37,729 nucleotides of DNA. Source: Candidatus Beckwithbacteria bacterium. GTDB lineage: Bacteria; Patescibacteriota; Microgenomatia; UBA1400; UBA1449. The first letter of the stretch is position 1. Each line of letters starts with the position of its first letter. The position numbers and the translations under genes are program-made. The DNA lies in contig JAAZOH010000042.1 of NCBI GenBank assembly GCA_012797845.1, positions 1-37,729 of the forward strand, in the 5' to 3' direction. This document shows positions 1 through 32,210 of the stretch, in pieces. The notes under the pieces are model-generated. The model had not been told where the DNA came from. It worked only from the letters and a program-made list of their open reading frames with translations, and searched no databases.

Positions 1-172
<172 letters not shown>

Positions 173-235
173 TAAGCATTAACGACGTTTCTTCCACATC
201 TGACTTTCTCATCTTTTGAGATGTTTGAAATCTAG

Positions 236-269
236 AACCACCCTTCGACTATGCTCAGGGTGGTTTTTT
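236..269 (+). terminator. Rho-independent terminator after 16S
   Basis: A perfect 9-bp stem, AACCACCCT (236-244) with AGGGTGGTT (257-265), closes a 12-nt loop and runs into a row of T. The loop and stem carry the CCCTTCGACT...GCTCAGGG motif typical of repetitive palindromes. It should end the 16S transcript well before 23S, so 16S and 23S are probably separate transcription units. Confidence 0.85.
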
Positions 270-277
270 GTTACAAT
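269..277 (+). promoter_or_regulatory. Extended -10 promoter, likely leaderless start
   Basis: TGTTACAAT has the TGn extension (269-271) and a TACAAT -10 box (272-277). No good -35 is visible. A start of transcription about 7 nt downstream falls on the ATG at 284, and no SD is present, so the mRNA would be leaderless. Confidence 0.45.
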
Positions 278-283
278 CAAGTT

Positions 284-1039
284 ATGGTGGCAATTTGTGA
301 AGTTTCTACTTTTCATGATCCAGTTGGTGATACGAGTACAGTTTTTTTACAAAAACACGCTGAAACTATTAAAAGCTTGTTTCCTGATATTGCTATTGCG
401 GTGACTGATGCTACAAACTCTAACTTGTTAAATCTTTTAGATCATTTAAAAATTCCATACCAGAAGACACTAACTGGAAAAGGCAGTCTATCTCGAAGGC
501 GAGCTCTTGAAACGGGTTTACAAAGCCAGGCTCAAACCTTTTTTCATATTGATTTAGACCGCTTATTATTTTGGTTAGACCAGTACCCTCAAGAGTTGGA
601 AAAAGTATTACAGCAATGTAAAAACCTAAATAATCAATTCTTAGTAATTGGTCGGACAGTTAAAGCATGGCAAAGTCATCCCATTTGGCAGCAAGAACCA
701 GAAGCATTAACTAATCAAGCTATTTCTCGAGAATTAGGAGTGAAACTTGATGTTACAGCAGGTTGTTATGCTTTTGACAGAACTATTGCCCAAATTATTA
801 CCCAGACAGCCCAAGGTGAAGCTTCGTGTGTTTCTGATATTGAATGGGTAATGATAGCCAAACACATAGGCGCCCAAATTCTTAGTATTAAAGTTGATGG
901 TTTAAGCTATGAAACCAAGCTCATCTTTGGTCAAGCACGAGCCAGTCAACCAGCTGGTAATTATGAATCTAGTCGGCAAAAGCTAGCCGAGCAAACAATT
1001 GCAATGATAGAAAAAGTCAAAACCTATGATCAAAATTAA
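284..1039 (+). CDS. GT-A-like glycosyltransferase-family protein
   Basis: This predicted soluble protein of about 251 aa has the look of a GT-A-fold nucleotide-sugar enzyme. Near residues 84-86 it has an H-I-D-L-D element like the DxD metal/nucleotide-sugar motif, an early region rich in Asp/Ser, and SDIEW late in the chain, where such enzymes carry the acceptor-side acidic residue. The specific donor and acceptor are not recognisable. An upstream in-frame ATG at 251 lies inside the terminator hairpin, so the ATG at 284 (MVAICEV) is preferred. The gene overlaps the next one by 14 nt and shares an operon with a GT-C-like protein and a GT2 enzyme. Together they suggest transfer of sugars to a lipid carrier or the cell surface. 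The position between 16S and tRNA-Ile is unusual. It could also be a non-catalytic relative. Confidence 0.6.
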   Translation: MVAICEVSTFHDPVGDTSTVFLQKHAETIKSLFPDIAIAVTDATNSNLLNLLDHLKIPYQKTLTGKGSLSRRRALETGLQSQAQTFFHIDLDRLLFWLDQYPQELEKVLQQCKNLNNQFLVIGRTVKAWQSHPIWQQEPEALTNQAISRELGVKLDVTAGCYAFDRTIAQIITQTAQGEASCVSDIEWVMIAKHIGAQILSIKVDGLSYETKLIFGQARASQPAGNYESSRQKLAEQTIAMIEKVKTYDQN

Positions 1040-2720
1040 GTCTTATCTTTTTCCAATCTTACTTATTATCTTCTCTCTCTTTGCGGTCAAAGCCCTGTTT
1101 CATCCAGGTTTTTATACTAGCCATGATGGTGGCCACCAAATTATGCGCTTGGTTTATTTTCATCAAGGCTTAGTTGATGGCCAGTTTCCAGTCCGTTGGG
1201 CTGGTAATGCTTTAGATAGTTATGGTTATCCCTTATTTATCTTTACCTACCGTTTGCCATTTTGGATTGCTGAAATCTGGTACCTGCTATTTCACAGTTT
1301 GGCTGGAGCCATTAAGTTTGCCTTTATTGCTAGCTTTGTAATCTCAAGTCTGACCATGTATTGGCTGCTACTGCGGCTTAGTAAAAGCAAAATTGCGGCT
1401 TTTACCGGCAGTATGGTGTACCTTTGGGCGCCGTACCGTTTTGTCGATATCTTTGTCCGAGCAGCTTTAGGAGAAGCTTTTACCTTTATATTTGCCCCTT
1501 TAATGTTTCTAGGGCTGTTTGAATTAAGCCATAGTAAAAAAATAAAAGAACAAATTAAATGGGGATTAGTTTTAGCTTTAGGGATTACAGGTATGGTTTT
1601 ATCTCACAGCATGACGTTGGTGCTCTTTATTTTTCCTCTGCTACTTTGGTTTTTATTGTGGCTTTTAAAAAGTAAAAGTAAATTGCGATACATAGGCACA
1701 ACGGTAGTTTCTGGTTTGCTAAGTCTGGGTTTGACGGCGTACTATTGGTTTCCAGCTTTTTATGAGCGCAAATTTACCATTGTGTCGGATGTGTTGGGAG
1801 CCTACTACAAAGACCATTTTGTGACCTTTACCCAGCTATTGCGCAGCACTTGGCTCTATGGTTTTTCTATGCCAGGTACAGCCGATGATATGATGTCATT
1901 TCAAGTTGGTTACGCGCAATGGGGTATAGCAGCCTTAGCTTTTACTACTATCTTGTTGTTTTTAGTTAGATCAAAGCTGAAAAGTTTTATAACCCTTGGT
2001 TTCCAACAGCTACTGATTTTAGTCTATAGCTTGTTGGTTTTTGGGATAGCTATTATGCTTATGTTACCAAGTGGAGAACCATTTTTTGATTTTTTAAGCA
2101 AAGTAGTAGCTATTGATTTACCTTGGAAATTTCTAGAAGTAACTACGTTTAGTGCAGCTTTACTGATTACCGTTATTGTACAGATTATAACTAAAAAGTG
2201 GTTGCAAACCTTTTGCGTGATTGGAATAGTTGCCTTGGCGCTAGTAGGCAATCGGCATCATTTGCGGGTTAATCAATATACCTTTATGCCAGATAGTGAC
2301 TACTTTGCTAGTACTGAAACCAGTAATCAATATGAAGACTATCGCCCCAAGGAATTTGACCAAAATTTGTCCCAAAAAGATCCGTTAGTACAAGTTTTAT
2401 CTGGTCAGGCACAGACAAGCGATGTTTACAATAAATCAAATCAACTTAGTTTTACTGCCCAGGTGGCTTCTGATGGAGCTAAACTAGGCCTTAAAAAAGC
2501 TTACTATCCAGGTTGGCAAATTAAAGTAGATGAGCAAGCTCAGACCCTTAATCAAGAACAAGGCCGTTTAGTTGTGAGTCTGAATCAAGGCAAACACCAT
2601 GTTGTCGCTATTTTTACTAATACCTCTTGGCGGCAGGTAGTTGACCTGGTTTCTTTATTGACTTTACTAGGAGTTACTTTTACAGTGCTAATATTATGGC
2701 TAAGGAAAAAGCAAAAGTAG
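1026..2720 (+). CDS. Polytopic membrane protein, PTPS-related / GT-C-like
   Basis: This 564-aa integral membrane protein has about 11-12 predicted hydrophobic segments in its first 400 residues and a final one near the C terminus before the positive tail LRKKQK. The N-terminal segment is followed by an extracytoplasmic loop with HDGGHQ and FPVRW, a pattern seen in the 6-pyruvoyl-tetrahydropterin-synthase-related membrane family and in GT-C glycosyltransferases generally. The acidic pair usual at the first loop is only loosely matched. Residues about 420-530 form a soluble domain ending in a GWQIKVD-type beta module, as in YfhO-like proteins. It is translationally coupled to both neighbours (overlaps of 14 and 25 nt). 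It probably uses a polyprenyl-phosphate sugar made by the downstream GT2 enzyme. Substrate unknown. Confidence 0.7.
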   Translation: MIKIKSYLFPILLIIFSLFAVKALFHPGFYTSHDGGHQIMRLVYFHQGLVDGQFPVRWAGNALDSYGYPLFIFTYRLPFWIAEIWYLLFHSLAGAIKFAFIASFVISSLTMYWLLLRLSKSKIAAFTGSMVYLWAPYRFVDIFVRAALGEAFTFIFAPLMFLGLFELSHSKKIKEQIKWGLVLALGITGMVLSHSMTLVLFIFPLLLWFLLWLLKSKSKLRYIGTTVVSGLLSLGLTAYYWFPAFYERKFTIVSDVLGAYYKDHFVTFTQLLRSTWLYGFSMPGTADDMMSFQVGYAQWGIAALAFTTILLFLVRSKLKSFITLGFQQLLILVYSLLVFGIAIMLMLPSGEPFFDFLSKVVAIDLPWKFLEVTTFSAALLITVIVQIITKKWLQTFCVIGIVALALVGNRHHLRVNQYTFMPDSDYFASTETSNQYEDYRPKEFDQNLSQKDPLVQVLSGQAQTSDVYNKSNQLSFTAQVASDGAKLGLKKAYYPGWQIKVDEQAQTLNQEQGRLVVSLNQGKHHVVAIFTNTSWRQVVDLVSLLTLLGVTFTVLILWLRKKQK

Positions 2721-3430
2721 TAGTCATTATGCCGGCCTACAATGCAGCTAAAACCCTGGAAAAAACGGTTAAAGATATTCCGCCTGGGATAGCTAGCGAG
2801 ATTATTTTGGTTGATGATGGCTCTTCTGATAAAACCATTAAAGTTGCCCAAAAAATGGGCTTATCGGTTTTTTCCCACCCAGCCAATCTAGGCTATGGTG
2901 GTAATCAAAAAACCTGCTACTGGGAAGCCCTTAAGAAAAAGCCGGATATTGTAGTCATGATTCATCCTGATTACCAATATGACGCAACTTTAACCGAAGA
3001 ATTAATCAGACCAATTGTTCAAGGCCGCTTTGATATTATGCTAGGCTCCCGAGTCCGAAGTCGGGCAGAGGTACTGGCTGGGGGGATGCCATGGTGGAAG
3101 TACTATGGCAACCGCTTTTTGACCATTTCGGAAAATATTTTCCTAGGACTGAACTTATCTGAGTACCATACTGGTTTCAGGGCTTACTCAGCTAAAGCCT
3201 TGCGAAAAATTCCCTTTATGCGGATGTCCAACAATTTTGTCTTTGACCAGCAACTTCTGATTTCGGCAGTAGCCAACAATCTTAAGATAGGGGAAATTCC
3301 TGTGCCGGTGCGCTACTTCCCAGAAGCCTCCTCAGCCAATTTTATGGCCTCAACTAGGTATGGTCTGGAAACCCTATTTAACCTAGGCAGGTATATGTTC
3401 AATCGGCAAAGTCGCAAGTTTACATCCTGA
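2696..3430 (+). CDS. GT2 family glycosyltransferase, polyprenyl-phosphate sugar synthase type
   Basis: This 244-aa GT-A enzyme carries the family-2 signature near the N terminus: VVIMPAYNAAKTLE, then ILVDDGSSD (residues about 38-46) for UDP/GDP binding. MIHPDYQYD (about 87-95) replaces the usual DxD stretch. This pattern matches the DPM1/DPG-synthase-like branch, which loads a sugar onto polyprenyl phosphate on the cytoplasmic face. It lacks C-terminal membrane anchors, as single-domain members of the branch do. The start at 2696 overlaps the upstream gene by 25 nt; an ATG at 2729 would delete part of the first beta strand and is less likely. With the preceding GT-C-like protein it forms a plausible lipid-linked sugar donor/transferase pair. 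It ends with TGA. Confidence 0.85.
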   Translation: MAKEKAKVVVIMPAYNAAKTLEKTVKDIPPGIASEIILVDDGSSDKTIKVAQKMGLSVFSHPANLGYGGNQKTCYWEALKKKPDIVVMIHPDYQYDATLTEELIRPIVQGRFDIMLGSRVRSRAEVLAGGMPWWKYYGNRFLTISENIFLGLNLSEYHTGFRAYSAKALRKIPFMRMSNNFVFDQQLLISAVANNLKIGEIPVPVRYFPEASSANFMASTRYGLETLFNLGRYMFNRQSRKFTS

Positions 3431-3526
3431 TAATTTTTTCTAAAATTTGGAAAATATTTTCTAACATCTAAACTGAATGTTTTCTCAAGAAAAAATGTGT
3501 TCAAAGAAGCTGCTTGCAGCTGCTAG

Positions 3527-3554
3527 TTGGTAACTAAGAAAAAAATGGTAAAAT
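3527..3554 (+). promoter_or_regulatory. Probable promoter of tRNA-Ile
   Basis: TTGGTA (3527-3532), a 16-nt spacer and TAAAAT (3549-3554) preceded by TGG give an extended -10 promoter. The expected start is near 3561, about 8 nt before the tRNA. The gap before it (3431-3526) holds only AT-rich sequence and a 14-bp palindrome, AGCTGC-TT-GCAGCT, at 3508-3521. Confidence 0.5.
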
Positions 3555-3568
3555 AAACGGTTGTGAAT

Positions 3569-3642
3569 GGGTGATTAGCTCAGTTGGTTAGAGCGCAGTC
3601 CTGATAAGACTGAGGTCCTTGGTTCGACTCCAAGATCACCCA
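3569..3642 (+). tRNA. tRNA-Ile (GAT)
   Basis: A full cloverleaf of 74 nt is present. The acceptor GGGTGAT pairs with ATCACCC at 3635-3641, followed by discriminator A. The anticodon stem CAGTC/GACTG encloses CTGATAA with anticodon GAT at 3603-3605, and the T arm carries GGTTCGACTCC. CCA is not encoded. This is one of the two standard rRNA-spacer tRNAs, but here it sits more than 3 kb after 16S. Confidence 0.97.
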
Positions 3643-3807
3643 CCCTTCGTTCTTGATTTAATAATCAAGAACTACGGAGTGGCAAGCCACCTTAATTAAC
3701 CATATAGTTTTGGGAATAGATGCGAAGGGTGTCCCTCACGGAGTTTTTAGCAGAGTGGGACAGATTTCGGCGGGCAGGCCCACCAAAATAATTTCAAAAA
3801 CTCCCGT
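3643..3807 (+). other. Structured intergenic stretch between tRNA-Ile and leader module
   Basis: No gene is seen. A hairpin, GTTCTTGATT...AATCAAGAAC (3649-3672), follows the tRNA but has no T run. Further on, ACGGAGTTTTT (about 3739) can pair with AAAAACTCCCGT (about 3796-3807), enclosing GTGGG/CCCAC and a GGCAGGCC motif. This looks like a palindromic intergenic repeat rather than a gene. Confidence 0.4.
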
Positions 3808-3837
3808 TTGACTTGCCTGAATACTATCTGTTACAAT
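3808..3837 (+). promoter_or_regulatory. Promoter of the leader-peptide module
   Basis: TTGACT (3808-3813), an 18-nt spacer and TACAAT (3832-3837) form a near-consensus housekeeping promoter on the same strand as 23S. Transcription would begin near 3844, a few nucleotides before the SD of the small ORF at 3868. Confidence 0.7.
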
Positions 3838-3867
3838 ACTCTTTGCCTTTTAGGAGCTAATTAAAAC

Positions 3868-3939
3868 ATGAGTACAACTCAAACAATCAATAAAATCCTT
3901 AGCCATTATTTTTCAGTTTTTGCCCATTGGCGGTTTTGA
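3868..3939 (+). CDS. Putative 23-aa leader peptide upstream of tRNA-Ala-23S
   Basis: A short ORF begins with ATG 11 nt after an AGGAG SD (3852-3856) and ends with TGA. Its C-terminal half is strikingly aromatic (HYFSVFAHWRF: His, Tyr, three Phe and Trp in 11 residues). It lies between a good promoter (3808-3837) and a strong terminator hairpin (3964-3988), the layout of a transcription-attenuation leader. The next gene on the strand is tRNA-Ala followed by 23S rRNA, not an amino-acid biosynthesis operon. It is not known to me as a described leader peptide. It may instead be a free-standing small peptide gene with its own terminator. The sequence shows the parts; the regulatory role is inference. 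Confidence 0.55.
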   Translation: MSTTQTINKILSHYFSVFAHWRF

Positions 3940-3963
3940 TTTGAGTTTATATCTGTTTTTTGC

Positions 3964-3988
3964 AAAGTCTCCTCAAGGAGACTTTTTT
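3964..3988 (+). terminator. Terminator/attenuator hairpin after the leader peptide
   Basis: AAAGTCTCC (3964-3972) pairs perfectly with GGAGACTTT (3977-3985) across a TCAA tetraloop and is followed by further T. CTCCT (3969-3973) could also pair with the AGGAG SD of the leader peptide, so an alternative fold is possible. Only a weak promoter candidate (TTTAGC-17-TAGGAT, 3992-4020) lies between it and tRNA-Ala. Confidence 0.85.
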
Positions 3989-4038
3989 AGTTTTAGCACT
4001 TTTAATTTAGAAGTTAGGATAGTCGGGACAGGAACAAA

Positions 4039-4111
4039 GGGCCTATAGCTCATCTGGTAGAGCGCATCGTTTGCAACGATGAGGTGGCCGGTTCGAGCCC
4101 GGCTAGGTCCA
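4039..4111 (+). tRNA. tRNA-Ala (TGC)
   Basis: A 73-nt cloverleaf is present. The acceptor GGGCCTA pairs with TAGGTCC (4104-4110, one G-U), followed by discriminator A. The anticodon stem CATCG/CGATG encloses TTTGCAA with anticodon TGC at 4072-4074, and GGTTCGAGCCC forms the T arm. CCA is not encoded. It is the second rRNA-spacer tRNA and lies about 240 nt before 23S. A 12-bp palindrome, CCTGCCGGCAGG (4129-4140), follows it. Confidence 0.97.
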
Positions 4112-4283
4112 CATGATTAAACAGGAGTCCTGCCGGCAGGCAAGTCGACTCTCCTAGATCCACAACTTAGAGATTAGTAATTGGTAACTTGTTTAGTTGC
4201 TAGCTACTAGTTTCTAAAGTAACTAGAAACATTGAGAACAAATTGAGGACAACTGGTGTTTAATCGAAGCGTTGCTCATGTTT

Positions 4284-4298
4284 TAGTTCTTTGAAAAG
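4284..4298 (+). promoter_or_regulatory. boxA-like antitermination site before 23S
   Basis: AGTTCTTTGAAAAG matches the boxA-type element (GTTCTTTGAAAACT) found in the 16S-23S spacers of many Gram-positive bacteria, where Nus factors bind the nascent rRNA. It overlaps the 5' arm of the 23S processing stem, as is common. Confidence 0.55.
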
Positions 4299-4308
4299 TG
4301 AATAGAAG
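4286..4308 (+). repeat. 23S precursor processing stem, 5' arm
   Basis: This 23-nt arm is the reverse complement of 7319-7341, with one G-U pair. Inside it, 4327-4349 (TTAATAGCTATTTGC...) pairs with 7281-7302 after a 2-nt bulge, and TTAGCACTT pairs with AAGTGCTTT. The long stem brackets 23S rRNA and should be cut by RNase III during maturation. Confidence 0.85.
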
Positions 4309-4351
4309 AGTGTAGGCAAATTATTAATAGCTATTTGCTATTGAAATTTAG

Positions 4352-7280
<2,929 letters not shown>

Positions 7281-7318
7281 TTTTCAATAGCAAAGCTATT
7301 AAAAGAGCTTACGTAAAA

Positions 7319-7341
7319 CTTCTATTCACTTTTCAGAGAAC
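7319..7341 (+). repeat. 23S precursor processing stem, 3' arm
   Basis: Pairs with 4286-4308 over 23 positions (22 Watson-Crick plus one G-U) and closes the 23S precursor loop. Confidence 0.85.
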
Positions 7342-7354
7342 TGCACTTTTATAG

Positions 7355-7494
7355 TGTCATTCTGAGCGAAGCGAAGAATCTTCTATAGTTCATCTTGAAC
7401 ATATGGGGGATCCCTCGAATTCTGTTTTTGTCACATCAAAAACAGATATTCTCAGGATGACAAGTTTGATCTAAAAAAGTTTATCAAACTTGTC
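7355..7494 (+). repeat. REP/BIME-like palindromic element between 23S and 5S
   Basis: TGTCATTCTGAG (7355-7366) and CTCAGGATGACA (7451-7462) are inverted ends matching at 11 of 12 positions. Inside are CTGTTTTTG/CAAAAACAG (7422-7445) and GTTCATCTTGAAC. An attached hairpin, GACAAGTTTGAT (7459-7470) with ATCAAACTTGTC (7483-7494), is perfect. A diverged second copy lies at 9465-9535. It sits inside the 23S-5S spacer. Confidence 0.65.
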
Positions 7495-7507
7495 AGTTTA
7501 TTTATCC

Positions 7508-7629
7508 TGTTCCGGTTTCTGGAGCGAGGTGGTCCCACCTCTTCCCATTCCGAACAGAGTCGTTAAACGCCTCAGCGCCGACGATATTGCCCGGGCAACT
7601 GGGTGAGAAAATAGGTCGAAGCCGGAACA
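7508..7629 (+). rRNA. rrf: 5S ribosomal RNA
   Basis: The sequence holds the 5S hallmarks CCCATTCCGAACAGAG, CAGCGCCGACGATATTGCCC and TAGGTCGAAGCCGG. Terminal helix I is CCTGTTCCGG (7506-7515) pairing with CCGGAACAGG (7622-7631). The mature ends lie within this helix and are set approximately. Confidence 0.94.
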
Positions 7630-24717: not shown

Positions 24718-25191
24718 ATGAAAAAGATTGTCGACAATCGTGGTTTTACCCTGATTGAACTCCTAGTTGTTATTGGCGTGATTGCTATTCTAGCTGCTAT
24801 CGTTTTAGTTGCTGTCAATCCTGGCCGCCAGTTTGCTCAAGCTCGAGATACCCAAAGGCGTTCAGATCTGTATTCCATTACTAATGCGATTTACCAATAT
24901 GCTGCTGAGCATGAAGGTAATTTGCCTGATACTGATGGAGATGATTCAACCAGTAACTTCCCAACTACCCCAACTTGTATTGGAGTTGGTGCTGGCTGTT
25001 TTGATCTGGGAGCTTCCACTGATGAGGCCGGAACTGAAACTGTAGTTCCTACCTATATAGCAGAAATTCCCTCTGATCCGTCAACTGGTGATGCAGCCAA
25101 TACTGGCTACTTAATCAATGTGGATGGCAATGGCAGAATCATTGCTTCTGCAAGTGGAGAGATCCAAACATCTATTACGGTAACCAGGTAG
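24718..25191 (+). CDS. Type IV pilin, copy 1
   Basis: This 157-aa prepilin has leader MKKIVDNRG, then the cut site and FTLIELLVVIGVIAILAA with Glu5, the classical N-methylated helix. The AVNPGRQFAQARDTQRRSDL segment is usual for pseudopilin-like major pilins of Patescibacteria. The C-terminal domain (about 55-150) has a Cys pair (CIGVGAGC) and ends TGYLINVDGNGRIIASASG. The SD GGGGAGGTGAG (24699-24709) is strong. It is a tandem paralogue of the next gene, and each copy has its own terminator. Confidence 0.93.
   Translation: MKKIVDNRGFTLIELLVVIGVIAILAAIVLVAVNPGRQFAQARDTQRRSDLYSITNAIYQYAAEHEGNLPDTDGDDSTSNFPTTPTCIGVGAGCFDLGASTDEAGTETVVPTYIAEIPSDPSTGDAANTGYLINVDGNGRIIASASGEIQTSITVTR
24802..24902 (+). 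repeat. 101-bp tract identical to 25395-25495 (pilin copy 1)
   Basis: This stretch is base-for-base identical to the second pilin gene, whereas codons just before and after it differ at many silent positions. Confidence 0.9.
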
Positions 25192-25319: not shown

Positions 25320-25775
25320 ATGAATTCAAATCGAGGTTTTACTCTAATTGAACTTTTAGTAGTGATTGGAGTTATTGCTATCTTAGCAGCAGTAGTTTTA
25401 GTTGCTGTCAATCCTGGCCGCCAGTTTGCTCAAGCTCGAGATACCCAAAGGCGTTCAGATCTGTATTCCATTACTAATGCGATTTACCAATATGCAGCTG
25501 AGCATGAAGGCAATTTGCCTGATACTGATGGAGATCCAGTGACTGACAACTTTCCGACTACTCCAACCTGTATTGGTGCTGGAGCTGGTTGCTTTAATTT
25601 AGGTGTAGCTGGCGATGATGTAACTGTAGTTCCTACCTATATGGCAGAAATCCCTGCTGATCCAGCTACTGGTGATGCAGCCAATACCGGTTATTTGATC
25701 AACGTTGATGCTAATGGCCGAGTAGTAGCATCTGGGAGCGGAGAGTTGGTTGAGGCTATTACTGTTACCCGTTAA
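25320..25775 (+). CDS. Type IV pilin, copy 2
   Basis: This 151-aa prepilin has a leader of MNSNRG, then FTLIELLVVIGVIAILAA with Glu5. The protein is nearly the same as copy 1 through residue 70 and at the C-terminal GDAANTGYLINVD part, but differs in the middle loop after CIGAGAGC, where copy 1 is longer. A loop exposed on the pilus surface is the expected place for such change. The very strong SD suggests that this is the more highly made pilin. The terminator follows immediately and shares the stop codon. Confidence 0.93.
   Translation: MNSNRGFTLIELLVVIGVIAILAAVVLVAVNPGRQFAQARDTQRRSDLYSITNAIYQYAAEHEGNLPDTDGDPVTDNFPTTPTCIGAGAGCFNLGVAGDDVTVVPTYMAEIPADPATGDAANTGYLINVDANGRVVASGSGELVEAITVTR
25395..25495 (+). 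repeat. 101-bp tract identical to 24802-24902 (pilin copy 2)
   Basis: Partner of the tract in copy 1; identity ends abruptly at both sides. Confidence 0.9.
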
Positions 25776-28987: not shown

Positions 28988-29016
28988 TTGACAAGCAATG
29001 TATAACATGTTATTAT
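28988..29016 (+). promoter_or_regulatory. Promoter of the LPXTG protein gene
   Basis: TTGACA (28988-28993), a 17-nt spacer and TATTAT (29011-29016) form a near-consensus promoter. The leader to 29100 is about 77 nt. Confidence 0.8.
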
Positions 29017-29099
29017 TGCCCAAATTAGAAACCCATAGTATCAATTCTAGTTTTTATTTAACATCATATTTGTTGAATAAAAACGCAAAGGACTGCTCT

Positions 29100-29753
29100 A
29101 TGAATAAACATATAACTACAATCCTAGCTACTATTGCTTTAGTTTTGGTAGCTACTTTTACCAATGTAAATCAGGCTCAAGCTGCTTGTCATAGTGTTTA
29201 TGGTGGTGGGGAAGTTTGTGATGAGTATGATATTGATTTGGATAAAGTGGTTTGGAATCCCAGTGAAGACAAGTGGCAAGACAATATTGACAGCAGCACC
29301 TATCTTTTTAAAGACGGTCAAGAAGTCAAATTTGAACTACGGGTTAAAAATACCGGTGACAGAAAAATCCATGAAATCACCTTGCGAGACATCTTTCCTA
29401 GTTATTTAAACTGGACCTCTGGTGGCAGTTGGCTTAGTGATAGTCAAAAATCTGAATTTAAAATTTATGACTTAGAGGCCGGTAGTACAGTTACTAAAAC
29501 CGTCTATGCCAAGTTTGTAGGCAAAGATGATCTGCCTTCTGGTATTACCTGTGTCACTAATAAAGGTGAAGTTTATACTAAACACGATGGTAGTGATACT
29601 GACACCTCAACTATTTGTGTAAGCCGTGAAGCTAAGGTTTTAGGCGTAACTACTTTACCAGCTACTGGACCCAATGTTCCAGTGATATTGGTAGCTGAAC
29701 TAGCTGCTCTTACTGGGTTAGGTTTTGCTTACCTAAAAGTCGCTAAAAAGTAA
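29100..29753 (+). CDS. LPXTG-anchored surface protein, sortase substrate
   Basis: This 217-aa secreted protein has a signal peptide of about 27 aa ending in AQA|A, then a small domain with two Cys. A DUF11-like beta-sandwich follows (about 70-165: VKFELRVKNTGDRKIHEITLRDIFP). The cell-wall sorting signal is LPATG at 186-190, with a hydrophobic helix (about 193-212) and the positive tail KVAKK. Start ATG 29100 has AAAGGA (29087-29092) as SD; a longer reading from 28998 runs through the promoter and is wrong. The upstream sortase is the probable anchoring enzyme. It has its own promoter and terminator. Confidence 0.88.
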   Translation: MNKHITTILATIALVLVATFTNVNQAQAACHSVYGGGEVCDEYDIDLDKVVWNPSEDKWQDNIDSSTYLFKDGQEVKFELRVKNTGDRKIHEITLRDIFPSYLNWTSGGSWLSDSQKSEFKIYDLEAGSTVTKTVYAKFVGKDDLPSGITCVTNKGEVYTKHDGSDTDTSTICVSREAKVLGVTTLPATGPNVPVILVAELAALTGLGFAYLKVAKK

Positions 29754-29891: not shown

Positions 29892-29920
29892 TTGACAAAA
29901 GTTTTTTTATAACCTATAAT
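29892..29920 (+). promoter_or_regulatory. Consensus promoter of the structured leader
   Basis: TTGACA (29892-29897), exactly 17 nt, then TATAAT (29915-29920): a full sigma-70-type consensus and the best promoter in the window. Transcription should begin near 29927, at the first base of the pairing segment described next. Confidence 0.9.
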
Positions 29921-29927
29921 ATGCAAC

Positions 29928-30302
29928 AGCTTTAACAGAATTACCAATTTTTCAAAAAATATACAAGCCAAACTGTTAAAGCAGGGACGGCATTTTGTTG
30001 GGAAAAACTAGGGGAATAGATCTGTTAAAGCTATAACTTCTTTATTCCCCTGGTTTCTCCCAAGAAACGGGAGAATAGGGTGCTGATTTTTGCCAAAAGA
30101 CACTGCGTCTTAATCTGGTAGGGAAAAGCACTGCTCTTTAATAAAGCATACACGGGAAAGTTGGCCAAGCCATTGTGGCTGCAAGAACAAAAGGCTTGTA
30201 TCTGCACTGGCTTGGCTAACTATATCAAACAAACTCTCGGGCGGAAACGCCGCAAACACCCAAGCTGAGGGAGTGCACCATACCTTAAAGGAGGTAAGTA
30301 AG
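29928..30302 (+). ncRNA. Highly structured leader RNA, possible riboswitch or ncRNA
   Basis: No ORF is evident in this stretch, which fills the gap between promoter and gene. AGCTTTAACAG (29928-29938) can pair with CTGTTAAAGC (29973-29982) or with CTGTTAAAGCT (30022-30032), so the two helices exclude each other. A 14-bp stem, AAACTAGGGGAATA with TATTCCCCTGGTTT (about 30006-30055), holds the second copy in its loop. TTCTCCC/GGGAGAA follows (30055-30075). A 26-position stem (30160-30185 with 30195-30220; 20 Watson-Crick, 4 G-U) dominates the 3' half. Then comes ACTCTC/GGGAGT (30233-30274) enclosing GGCG-GAAA-CGCC. TACCT (30281-30285) can pair with AGGTA (30292-30296) over the SD. It does not match tmRNA, RNase P, SRP, 6S, cobalamin or c-di-GMP motifs that I know. 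Confidence 0.65.
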
Positions 30303-31079
30303 ATGAGAGTAACAAGAGTTTTGGGAGTAGTAGGGATTGGTCTGGTTGTACTGGCTTTGCTGATTAGCGTTGTGAACATGGTGGTCGCGGCTGGCCCCTT
30401 CGTGGGGACGCCCAACTGCAAGGTTAACGGTACTGTGCGGAATATGGCGTGGGATGGGGAGACTCGCTTGTGGATGGACAACCAGCTAGCTCTGGATATC
30501 AAAACCAGTGGCGGTAGCTGTGTTGTCCGGTTCACCAACGCGATGGCATTCGTGCTCAACAGCGTTGAGGGGGAAGTTCGAGTTGATGGCAATGTCAATC
30601 CGTGGCCTCGAGGCAACGGACTCAAGTTGACAGGAACTGAAATCTCCATCGACTACCACGCCGATGACTACTCGAACGGCTTTGATCTCTGGCTGATCCG
30701 GACGCCTGCTCTGGTCCCAACTCAACCTGCACCGACCAAGGCTACCAAGCCAGTACCGAGTGTCGTAACACCTGTTCCGACCTATATGGTCCCGGCGCCT
30801 TCGACCCAGCCTGCGACGGGCTCATGCAAGGCCGGCAACAAGGAATGGAGTCTCGTTTGGGATGACAGCAAGGGTCGCTTGTATATGGACCCTTGGATTG
30901 CCGAAGCGCGTGAGGTCAACAAGACGCAGGTTGTCACCTGCACTCTCACCACGCAGGTTGCCGGCAACGTTGAGGCTCTGGGCAAGCAGATCCCGATTGC
31001 GGCGGCGGAAAGCTGGGAATATACCTTTCCGAAGGCTGATCCCAGTTTTGGATTTGCCTTTCAGGCAAGTCGCGGCTAG
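30303..31079 (+). CDS. Secreted two-repeat protein of unknown function, GC-rich
   Basis: This 258-aa protein has an N-terminal signal peptide or anchor (about 7-30, VVAA before GPF). Two related beta-rich modules begin CKVNG at Cys39 and CKAGN at Cys175. Each has a Trp-Asp core (AWDGETRLWMD; VWDDSKGRLYMD), and they are joined by a Pro/Thr linker (about 138-172). The SD AAAGGAGG (30287-30294) fixes the ATG at 30303. Codon use is plainly GC-rich (many CTG, GTC, GGC, ACG), unlike all neighbours, and the flanks to about 30110 and 31130 share this. That suggests transfer as a unit with its leader. No family is recognised. Export and modular structure suggest a surface or secreted binding protein. 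Confidence 0.75.
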   Translation: MRVTRVLGVVGIGLVVLALLISVVNMVVAAGPFVGTPNCKVNGTVRNMAWDGETRLWMDNQLALDIKTSGGSCVVRFTNAMAFVLNSVEGEVRVDGNVNPWPRGNGLKLTGTEISIDYHADDYSNGFDLWLIRTPALVPTQPAPTKATKPVPSVVTPVPTYMVPAPSTQPATGSCKAGNKEWSLVWDDSKGRLYMDPWIAEAREVNKTQVVTCTLTTQVAGNVEALGKQIPIAAAESWEYTFPKADPSFGFAFQASRG

Positions 31080-31095
31080 CAGTCACGACCCGCCC

Positions 31096-31208
31096 GGCAG
31101 GGCACAAGTAAAATCGTGCCCTGCTTGGCACTCAAAGGTAACAGATTGAGACAATGGCGTCTTGATCAAGTTACCGAGAGACAGTGGTCTCTTACCCTTT
31201 TGTTTTTT
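31096..31208 (+). terminator. Hairpin series after the GC-rich gene
   Basis: Three stems follow the stop: GCAGGGCAC/GTGCCCTGC (31097-31124), GGTAAC/GTTACC (31137-31175) with an inner GAGAC/GTCTT, and GAGAGAC/GTCTCTT (31176-31193). The last leads into ACCCTTTTG and six T (31203-31208), so it is the probable terminator. The rest of the gap to 31298 shows nothing more. Confidence 0.6.
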
Positions 31209-31298
31209 AAAAAGTGTAAGAATGACCCCGTGTATGCTGTTTCTCTGAATGCAGCAAAATACTGATGCATTGAGAGGAATTAATAAAATTTAGCTTTT

Positions 31299-32210
31299 AT
31301 GAGTAAAAAAAGGCAAGAAAACGAGCTTATTTCCATTATTATGCCGGTTTACAATGCCGGTGATTTTTTAGTGGAAGCTATTAAAAGCATTTTGGATCAA
31401 ACCTATACGAATTGGGAGCTGATTGCAGTAGATGATAAATCCGAAGACAACTCTTTACAGATCTTAAAAAAATTTGCAGCTGGTGATAAACGGATCAAAA
31501 TAATTACTAACCGAAGTAATCGTGGAATTGGTTATAGTTTAAACCGAGCCCTTAAAGTAGCTAAAGGCACTTTTATTGCCCGGATGGATGCAGACGATAT
31601 TGCTGCTCCTAAAAGACTGGCTATTCAACAACAGTTTTTGAAAAAACACCCTAAAATTATTGTTTGTGGTGGGCAAGCCAATATGATTGATTGTCAAGGT
31701 AAAGTATTTGCTAAAAAGCAGTTTCCAACCAAACCCTCAATTTTATATGACATGATCATGCAAATGATCCCGATTCAACATCCCATGCTCATGGCCAGAG
31801 CCAAGTACTATAAAAGGTACCGCTATGATGAGTCGCTCTCAACAGCTGAAGATGTAGATTTGCTATTTTACTTTCTGAGCCGAGGCCCAATCAGTAATGT
31901 TTCTCAATATATCTACAACTATCGCAAAGCCAATAGTTCCAATGGCTACCATAATGTCAAAAAAACTTTTTACTTGACGTTTTTAGCTAGATGGAAAGCT
32001 ATTATTAGCTACCGGTACCAACCTTCTATTAAAGGAGTGCTTATTAGTCTAGCCCAGCTTATGGCTGTAACTGTCTTACCTTCACAATGGATAGTTAAAC
32101 TGTTTGAAGCTATTCGGTTTTATCCGCCCGTTTGGCAACGTTTACTAGCCATGCCTGAGAGATTAAACCCAAACCAAGAACTACGATTAAACCATAACCT
32201 AAATAGCTAA
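31299..32210 (+). CDS. GT2 family glycosyltransferase
   Basis: This 303-aa GT-A enzyme begins with the classical GT2 sequence ISIIMPVYNAGDFLVEAI, LIAVDDKSEDNS (residues about 45-56) and ARMDADDIAAP (about 93-103) with the metal-binding DxD. The C-terminal half (about 185-270) holds the usual ED motif (TAEDVDLLF) acting as catalytic base. A weakly hydrophobic stretch near 245-262 may touch the membrane. It probably adds sugars to a surface polysaccharide or glycolipid. No close SD is seen (GAGAGGA lies about 20 nt off). The last 101 nt overlap the 3' end of the opposite-strand gene. Confidence 0.9.
   Translation: MSKKRQENELISIIMPVYNAGDFLVEAIKSILDQTYTNWELIAVDDKSEDNSLQILKKFAAGDKRIKIITNRSNRGIGYSLNRALKVAKGTFIARMDADDIAAPKRLAIQQQFLKKHPKIIVCGGQANMIDCQGKVFAKKQFPTKPSILYDMIMQMIPIQHPMLMARAKYYKRYRYDESLSTAEDVDLLFYFLSRGPISNVSQYIYNYRKANSSNGYHNVKKTFYLTFLARWKAIISYRYQPSIKGVLISLAQLMAVTVLPSQWIVKLFEAIRFYPPVWQRLLAMPERLNPNQELRLNHNLNS

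What the first reader, a model, noticed from the sequence alone, without database searches (positions are those of the whole stretch)
29928..30302. Leader RNA with mutually exclusive helices and a masked SD: possible new regulatory RNA
A perfect consensus promoter drives about 375 nt of RNA without an evident ORF. The first 11 nt (AGCTTTAACAG) can pair with either of two complementary copies, 29973-29982 or 30022-30032; the second lies in the loop of a 14-bp stem, giving a pseudoknot. A 26-position hairpin, a GNRA-capped stem and a hairpin touching the SD follow. This is the architecture of a switch, and it does not match classes I know.
Basis: partly seen in the sequence, partly recalled or inferred. 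Interest (0 to 1): 0.72.

Follow-up and report, generated by a model that had tools for sequence, protein, structure and literature searches.

The report
RNA frame around variable surface genes
Tiny bacteria of the Microgenomates group carry an apparently undescribed two-part RNA structure that brackets a swap-prone set of surface-protein genes, its two halves pairing with each other across up to about 4.4 kb of gene; the reported "leader" is the first half of it.

Summary
The leader is real and strongly folded (z = -8), with a perfect promoter and no Rfam match. That pairing is non-random in this window, yet I found no counterpart in relatives. The conserved object is a two-part RNA module. 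Before the gene: a tiered hairpin (H1, 30079-30132), an unpaired UCUUUAACAA-type linker (30135-30144) and the 5' strand of a helix, P4 (30145-30156). After the gene: the 3' strand of P4 (31227-31238) and a hairpin, H3 (31239-31280). P4 thus embraces the whole orphan secreted-protein gene.

I found the module at 21 Microgenomates loci in at least 8 families, next to sortase-substrate and glycosyltransferase genes where I looked. It encloses 0.5-4.4 kb of mostly unrelated secreted or lipoprotein genes. In P4, 11 of 12 base pairs show compensatory changes (0 of 500 shuffles reach the covariation score). Three members were found by synteny alone.

Most likely it is a cis-acting 5'/3' UTR frame that stabilises, or marks for processing, the surface-gene mRNA. 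The mechanism is inferred; the anatomy is well supported. Probably a new RNA class; a riboswitch is unlikely.

The parts
29892..29920 (+). Promoter TTGACA-17-TATAAT; expected start near 29926-29928
   Evidence: start site inferred
29928..29982 (+). 5' helix P1: GCTTTAACAG 29929-29938 with CTGTTAAAGC 29973-29982. Window-specific, alternative to 29928-29939 with 30021-30032
   Evidence: not found in relatives
29994..30067 (+). Long 5' hairpin P2, whose loop holds the second complementary copy 30021-30032
30079..30132 (+). H1: three-tier hairpin, apical loop ACUGC (30102-30106); recurrent shape in relatives
30135..30144 (+). Conserved unpaired linker UCUUUAAUAA (family consensus UCUUUAACAA)
30145..30156 (+). 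P4, 5' strand AGCAUACACGGG
30159..30221 (+). H2 hairpin just after the P4 5' strand
30281..30296 (+). Weak 6-bp hairpin over the Shine-Dalgarno AAGGAGGT
30303..31079 (+). Cargo: orphan secreted protein of 258 aa with an N-terminal hydrophobic helix; GC about 55% in a 35-40% GC setting
31092..31193 (+). 3' hairpins 31092-31129, 31137-31175 and 31178-31193
31227..31238 (+). P4, 3' strand CCCGUGUAUGCU
31239..31280 (+). H3 hairpin, abutting P4, upstream of the glycosyltransferase start at 31299

Best explanation
It is the 5' half of a bipartite cis-acting RNA element that frames a surface-gene cassette. Shown by comparison: H1, the linker UCUUUAACAA and the P4 5' strand lie before the cargo genes; the P4 3' strand and H3 lie after them; P4 is kept as a base-paired helix while the cargo differs from genome to genome. 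Inferred: one transcript runs from the promoter through the cargo. Once the 3' strand has been made, P4 closes the mRNA into a loop, with H1 and H3 flanking the junction and the linker exposed as a likely protein-binding site. The closed frame protects the cassette mRNA from exonucleases and/or marks where an endonuclease such as RNase III separates it from the downstream glycosyltransferase gene, so that whatever surface genes sit there share one expression signal.
For: P4 at 21 loci in one register, 0.5-4.4 kb apart; 11 of 12 pairs with changes on both sides, covariation 0.446 against 0.168 shuffled, 0/500, and slid controls far lower. Three members (L253, L257, L258) found from the neighbouring LPXTG-like gene without using the motif. 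H1 mean z -3.3 and H3 mean z -5.2 against -0.27 in nearby controls. Cargo under purifying selection (dN/dS about 0.2-0.3) although H1 is only 31-44% identical among sister genomes and the motif 95-100%. Strong promoters in this window and in L039. No partner plus strong H3 among 17-mer matches outside Microgenomates. Setting: sortase substrate upstream and glycosyltransferase or other envelope gene downstream. Precedent for 5'-3' UTR pairing with RNase III cutting: icaR (PMC3868564).
Against: No transcript data: that one RNA spans the cassette is assumed. Partners were first picked by complementarity; against stems from other loci the own stem ranks first in 12 of 18 loci, not all. L041 needs a bulge, L227 a mismatch; H3 is weak or displaced in L217, L218 and L227. 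Promoters elsewhere are weak by consensus. Some syntenic loci lack it (L254, L259; L256 unconfirmed). A stability or processing role is by analogy only.
Confidence: 0.5

Rival explanations
1. The RNA itself is the product: a large noncoding RNA (compare OLE, ROOL, GOLLD) that works in trans or as a particle, with the surface genes as insertions in one of its loops.
For: Ornate folding on both sides, a conserved unpaired core and loop pattern, a frame more conserved than its cargo.
Against: One copy found per genome, in one envelope locus; cargo conserved at protein level in sister genomes and always secreted, membrane or lipoprotein; only the H1-linker-P4-H3 core is conserved; no match to the large-RNA models.
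Confidence: 0.18
2. The P4 strands act as DNA inverted repeats: ends of a mobile or invertible cassette, so that 'covariation' only reflects identical repeat ends.
For: Cargo turns over between genomes and has a different GC content; perfect inverted repeats of 12-13 bp in several loci.
Against: No recombinase among the cargo scanned; cargo always in the same orientation; G.U pairs inside helices of L039, L214 and L216; the linker is conserved on one side only and hairpins abut the other side; no target duplication seen.
Confidence: 0.12
3. A riboswitch or RNA thermometer in the leader, as first proposed: the 5' end pairs with either of two copies and so controls the SD.
For: Mutually exclusive helices of -11.8 and -15.3 kcal/mol in this window; SD in a weak hairpin.
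Against: Segments not found in relatives; no terminator; no Rfam class; does not explain the 3' half.
Confidence: 0.07
4. An intron-like ribozyme: P4 closes a catalytic RNA that excises or circularises the cargo-bearing region.
For: An ORF-bearing domain closed by a helix, with a conserved unpaired core sequence.
Against: No group I or II intron match here or in 17 related loci; it does not interrupt a gene; no reverse transcriptase or homing endonuclease among the cargo examined.
Confidence: 0.06

Closest known systems
icaR mRNA 5'-3' UTR pairing, Staphylococcus aureus (PMC3868564)
   Same: 5' and 3' UTRs of one mRNA base-pair across a coding region.
   Different: In icaR a short UCCCC-type motif covers the SD and makes an RNase III site, for one gene. 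Here the 5' strand lies about 135 nt before the SD, the helix has its own hairpin module, and unrelated cargo, up to several genes, sits inside.
RNase III processing stems around ribosomal RNAs (own knowledge)
   Same: A long-range helix that encloses a large insert of a transcript.
   Different: Encloses mRNA for surface proteins; shorter helix; conserved unpaired linker; cutting not shown.
OLE, ROOL and GOLLD RNAs (PMC12286853)
   Same: Large ornate bacterial RNA of unknown role.
   Different: No match to any Rfam model; protein genes lie inside the long-range helix; conserved core is small.
Group II introns with an ORF in a domain loop (own knowledge)
   Same: An ORF inside a helix-closed domain of a structured RNA.
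   Different: No intron model match, no reverse transcriptase found, no interrupted host gene; cargo is secreted proteins.

Membership tests
Any Rfam 15 family | Covariance-model score at or above the gathering threshold | tested here: not met
Riboswitch | Conserved aptamer in the 5' leader only, upstream of an expression platform | tested here: not met
   The conserved unit spans both sides of the cargo; no terminator in the leader
Riboswitch | Ligand binding that changes the fold | not testable with these tools
   needs probing
icaR-type 5'-3' UTR pairing | 5' and 3' UTRs of one mRNA pair | tested here: met
   (pairing by covariation; a single spanning transcript is inferred)
icaR-type 5'-3' UTR pairing | Pairing occludes the SD | tested here: not met
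   P4 5' strand 30145-30156, SD 30288-30295
icaR-type 5'-3' UTR pairing | RNase III cleavage of the duplex | not testable with these tools
   needs RNA work
Group I / group II intron | Conserved catalytic core (domain V; P3-P7) | tested here: not met
   no model match
OLE / ROOL / GOLLD | Match to the family model | tested here: not met
DNA transposon / inverton | Recombinase gene, target duplication, or inverted alleles | tested here: not met
   cargo always in the same orientation. Alleles within populations were not tested

The most novel reading that the evidence does not exclude
A lineage-specific RNA chassis that hosts exchangeable surface-gene cargo: the conserved H1-linker-P4-H3 module is an RNP docking or processing site that stabilises, excises or circularises whatever genes lie within it, so that Microgenomates can swap surface proteins without changing their expression signals.
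Probability: 0.25. Interest if true: 0.9.

Novelty: categorically new. Interest (0 to 1): 0.8.

Why it matters
A covarying helix that joins the two ends of a 0.5-4.4 kb gene cassette, conserved while the enclosed genes turn over, is not a kind of element I found described (the library I searched is incomplete). If it acts as proposed, it shows RNA-level control of the most variable surface locus of these largely uncultivated bacteria. It also gives a handle (linker plus GGCAUAC/GUAUGCC) for finding such cassettes, and a clean test case for long-range mRNA closure in bacteria.

Tried and rejected
Nucleotide search for the leader in 53 relatives gave only short promoter-like or AT-rich matches. 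Protein searches for the cargo found no relatives; phage DNA search found nothing. Viral contigs and non-Microgenomates genomes that match the 17-mer show no P4 plus strong H3, so those hits are taken as chance; L118 and L127 look like coding sequence. I looked for an anti-linker (TGTTAAAG) in relatives' leaders: absent in most; and for the linker's complement in the rRNA operon: none. The MAFFT alignment of H1 is too poor for pair counts, so H1 rests on folding energy and recurrent shape. L220, L229-L233 and L256 had motif-like words without a convincing P4. Single-sequence AlphaFold of the cargo: pLDDT 50, not usable. Paper searches for an existing description found none.

Full report
WHAT WAS CHECKED. 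The promoter (12/12 match, spacing 17, 29892-29920), the ORF-poor leader, the complementary segments and the strong folding (z -8.05) are all in the sequence. The three-segment complementarity is beyond chance (0.02% of shuffles). Rfam gives no hit at gathering level in this region, and only weak matches of E 0.65 and above, mostly eukaryotic miRNA models, otherwise.

WHAT WAS MISSED. The region downstream of the gene, 31080-31298, folds just as strongly (z -8.03). A perfect 12-bp complement, 30145-30156 with 31227-31238, links it to the leader across the whole ORF. Its pairs have probability about 1 for ten of the twelve and at least 0.84 for the other two in a fold of the complete 1.37-kb RNA. 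In independent shuffles of the two flanks such a 12-mer appeared in 0.9%.

RELATIVES. The cargo protein is an orphan, so I used synteny. The upstream sortase substrate (LPATG-ended, 28998-29753) and the downstream glycosyltransferase (31299-32210) led to G001 and G006. There, unrelated GC-rich secreted genes occupy the same place, preceded by CTCTTTAACAAGGCATAC or TTCTTTAACAAGGCATAC. Searching that motif in 88 genomes of the order, 374 of the class, and a collection of 84,980 species genomes, and testing for a downstream partner, gave 18 loci. Those with names are Gottesmanbacteria, Woesebacteria, Roizmanbacteria and unnamed Microgenomates or Patescibacteria. The partner lies 0.5-4.4 kb downstream, always in the same register. 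Among the 17-mer matches outside Microgenomates, none has both a partner of at least 9 pairs and an H3 as stable as those of the Microgenomates loci.

COVARIATION. On 20 distinct sequences, 92.9% of P4 cells pair and 11 of 12 pairs show changes on both sides. The covariation score is 0.446 against 0.168 in shuffles (0 of 500), and every slid control is far lower. Single loci carry striking compensation: CAUGC/GCAUG (L217), GACAUAC/GUAUGUC (L218), AGCAAAC/GUUUGCU (L219), GGCGUGUAG/CUACACGCC (L253). Because partners were first picked by complementarity, I ran two checks. The locus's own stem finds a better partner than stems taken from other loci in 12 of 18 loci. Loci chosen only through the upstream LPXTG-like gene, with no use of the motif, yielded three further intact modules (L253, L257, L258) among seven read.

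ANATOMY. H1 is a multi-tier hairpin ending a few nucleotides before the linker, with an apical loop of the form A(n)2-4GC in about half of the loci. H3 starts 0-4 nt after P4 in most loci. Mean z is -3.3 for H1 and -5.2 for H3, against -0.27 in nearby control stretches. Among three sister genomes H1 identity is 31-44%, the motif 95-100%, and the shared cargo protein has dS 0.7-1.3 and dN 0.13-0.33. So H1 shape, motif sequence and cargo protein each appear constrained, in different ways. Additional ORFs differ even between these sisters, so cargo turns over.

MECHANISM. Shown by comparison: a conserved bipartite structure that pairs across the cargo. Inferred: co-transcription, closure of the mRNA into a loop, and a role in stability or processing. 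The position next to sortase, LPXTG-protein and glycosyltransferase genes, and the secreted or lipoprotein nature of the cargo, point to control of the variable cell surface. The P4 5' strand is about 135 nt from the SD, so direct SD occlusion as in icaR (PMC3868564) is unlikely here. A DNA-level role is disfavoured by G.U pairs, fixed orientation, the one-sided linker and the abutting hairpins. Intron, ornate-RNA and riboswitch memberships were tested and not met.

Right that this is an unclassified structured RNA. Unsupported on the switch: its competing segments have no counterpart in relatives. The element extends beyond the given coordinates, to 31280.

LIMITS. No RNA data; the genomes searched are a sample and the motif search misses diverged members; the H1 alignment is not good enough for pair counts; the literature library is open-access only. 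'Categorically new' refers to the architecture (no known RNA family; a paired frame around changing genes); if the mechanism proves to be plain UTR-UTR pairing, 'new variant of a known kind' would be the fairer label.

Noticed in passing
window 24718-25191 and 25320-25775: Two adjacent, nearly identical type IV pilin-like genes (tandem duplicate) in the pilus operon.
   Followed up: no
window 1-7627: rRNA operon with three protein genes (251-3430) between the 16S end (92) and the 23S start (4356), plus two tRNAs.
   Followed up: no
L222-L228, about 100-220 nt before the motif: Gottesmanbacteria-type members share an extra conserved 5' hairpin, GGAAAUGAGUCCCG...CGGGAUUC, absent from this window.
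   Followed up: partly
L255 (G038:C44), before the secreted ORF that starts near 1480 of the reversed slice: A likely further member: an H1-like hairpin with a GUUGC loop followed by TTCTTTAACA, but the P4 strand has diverged and the slice read was too short to test for its partner.
   Followed up: partly
window 29973-29982 and 30022-30031 against 30134-30143: The two CTGTTAAAGC copies can also pair with the conserved linker itself (8 bp, -5.4 kcal/mol), which could mask it in this genome.
   Followed up: partly
window 30303-31079: The cargo is much richer in GC (about 55%) than its surroundings; cargo in L039, L041 and others is likewise GC-richer than its flanks.
   Followed up: partly
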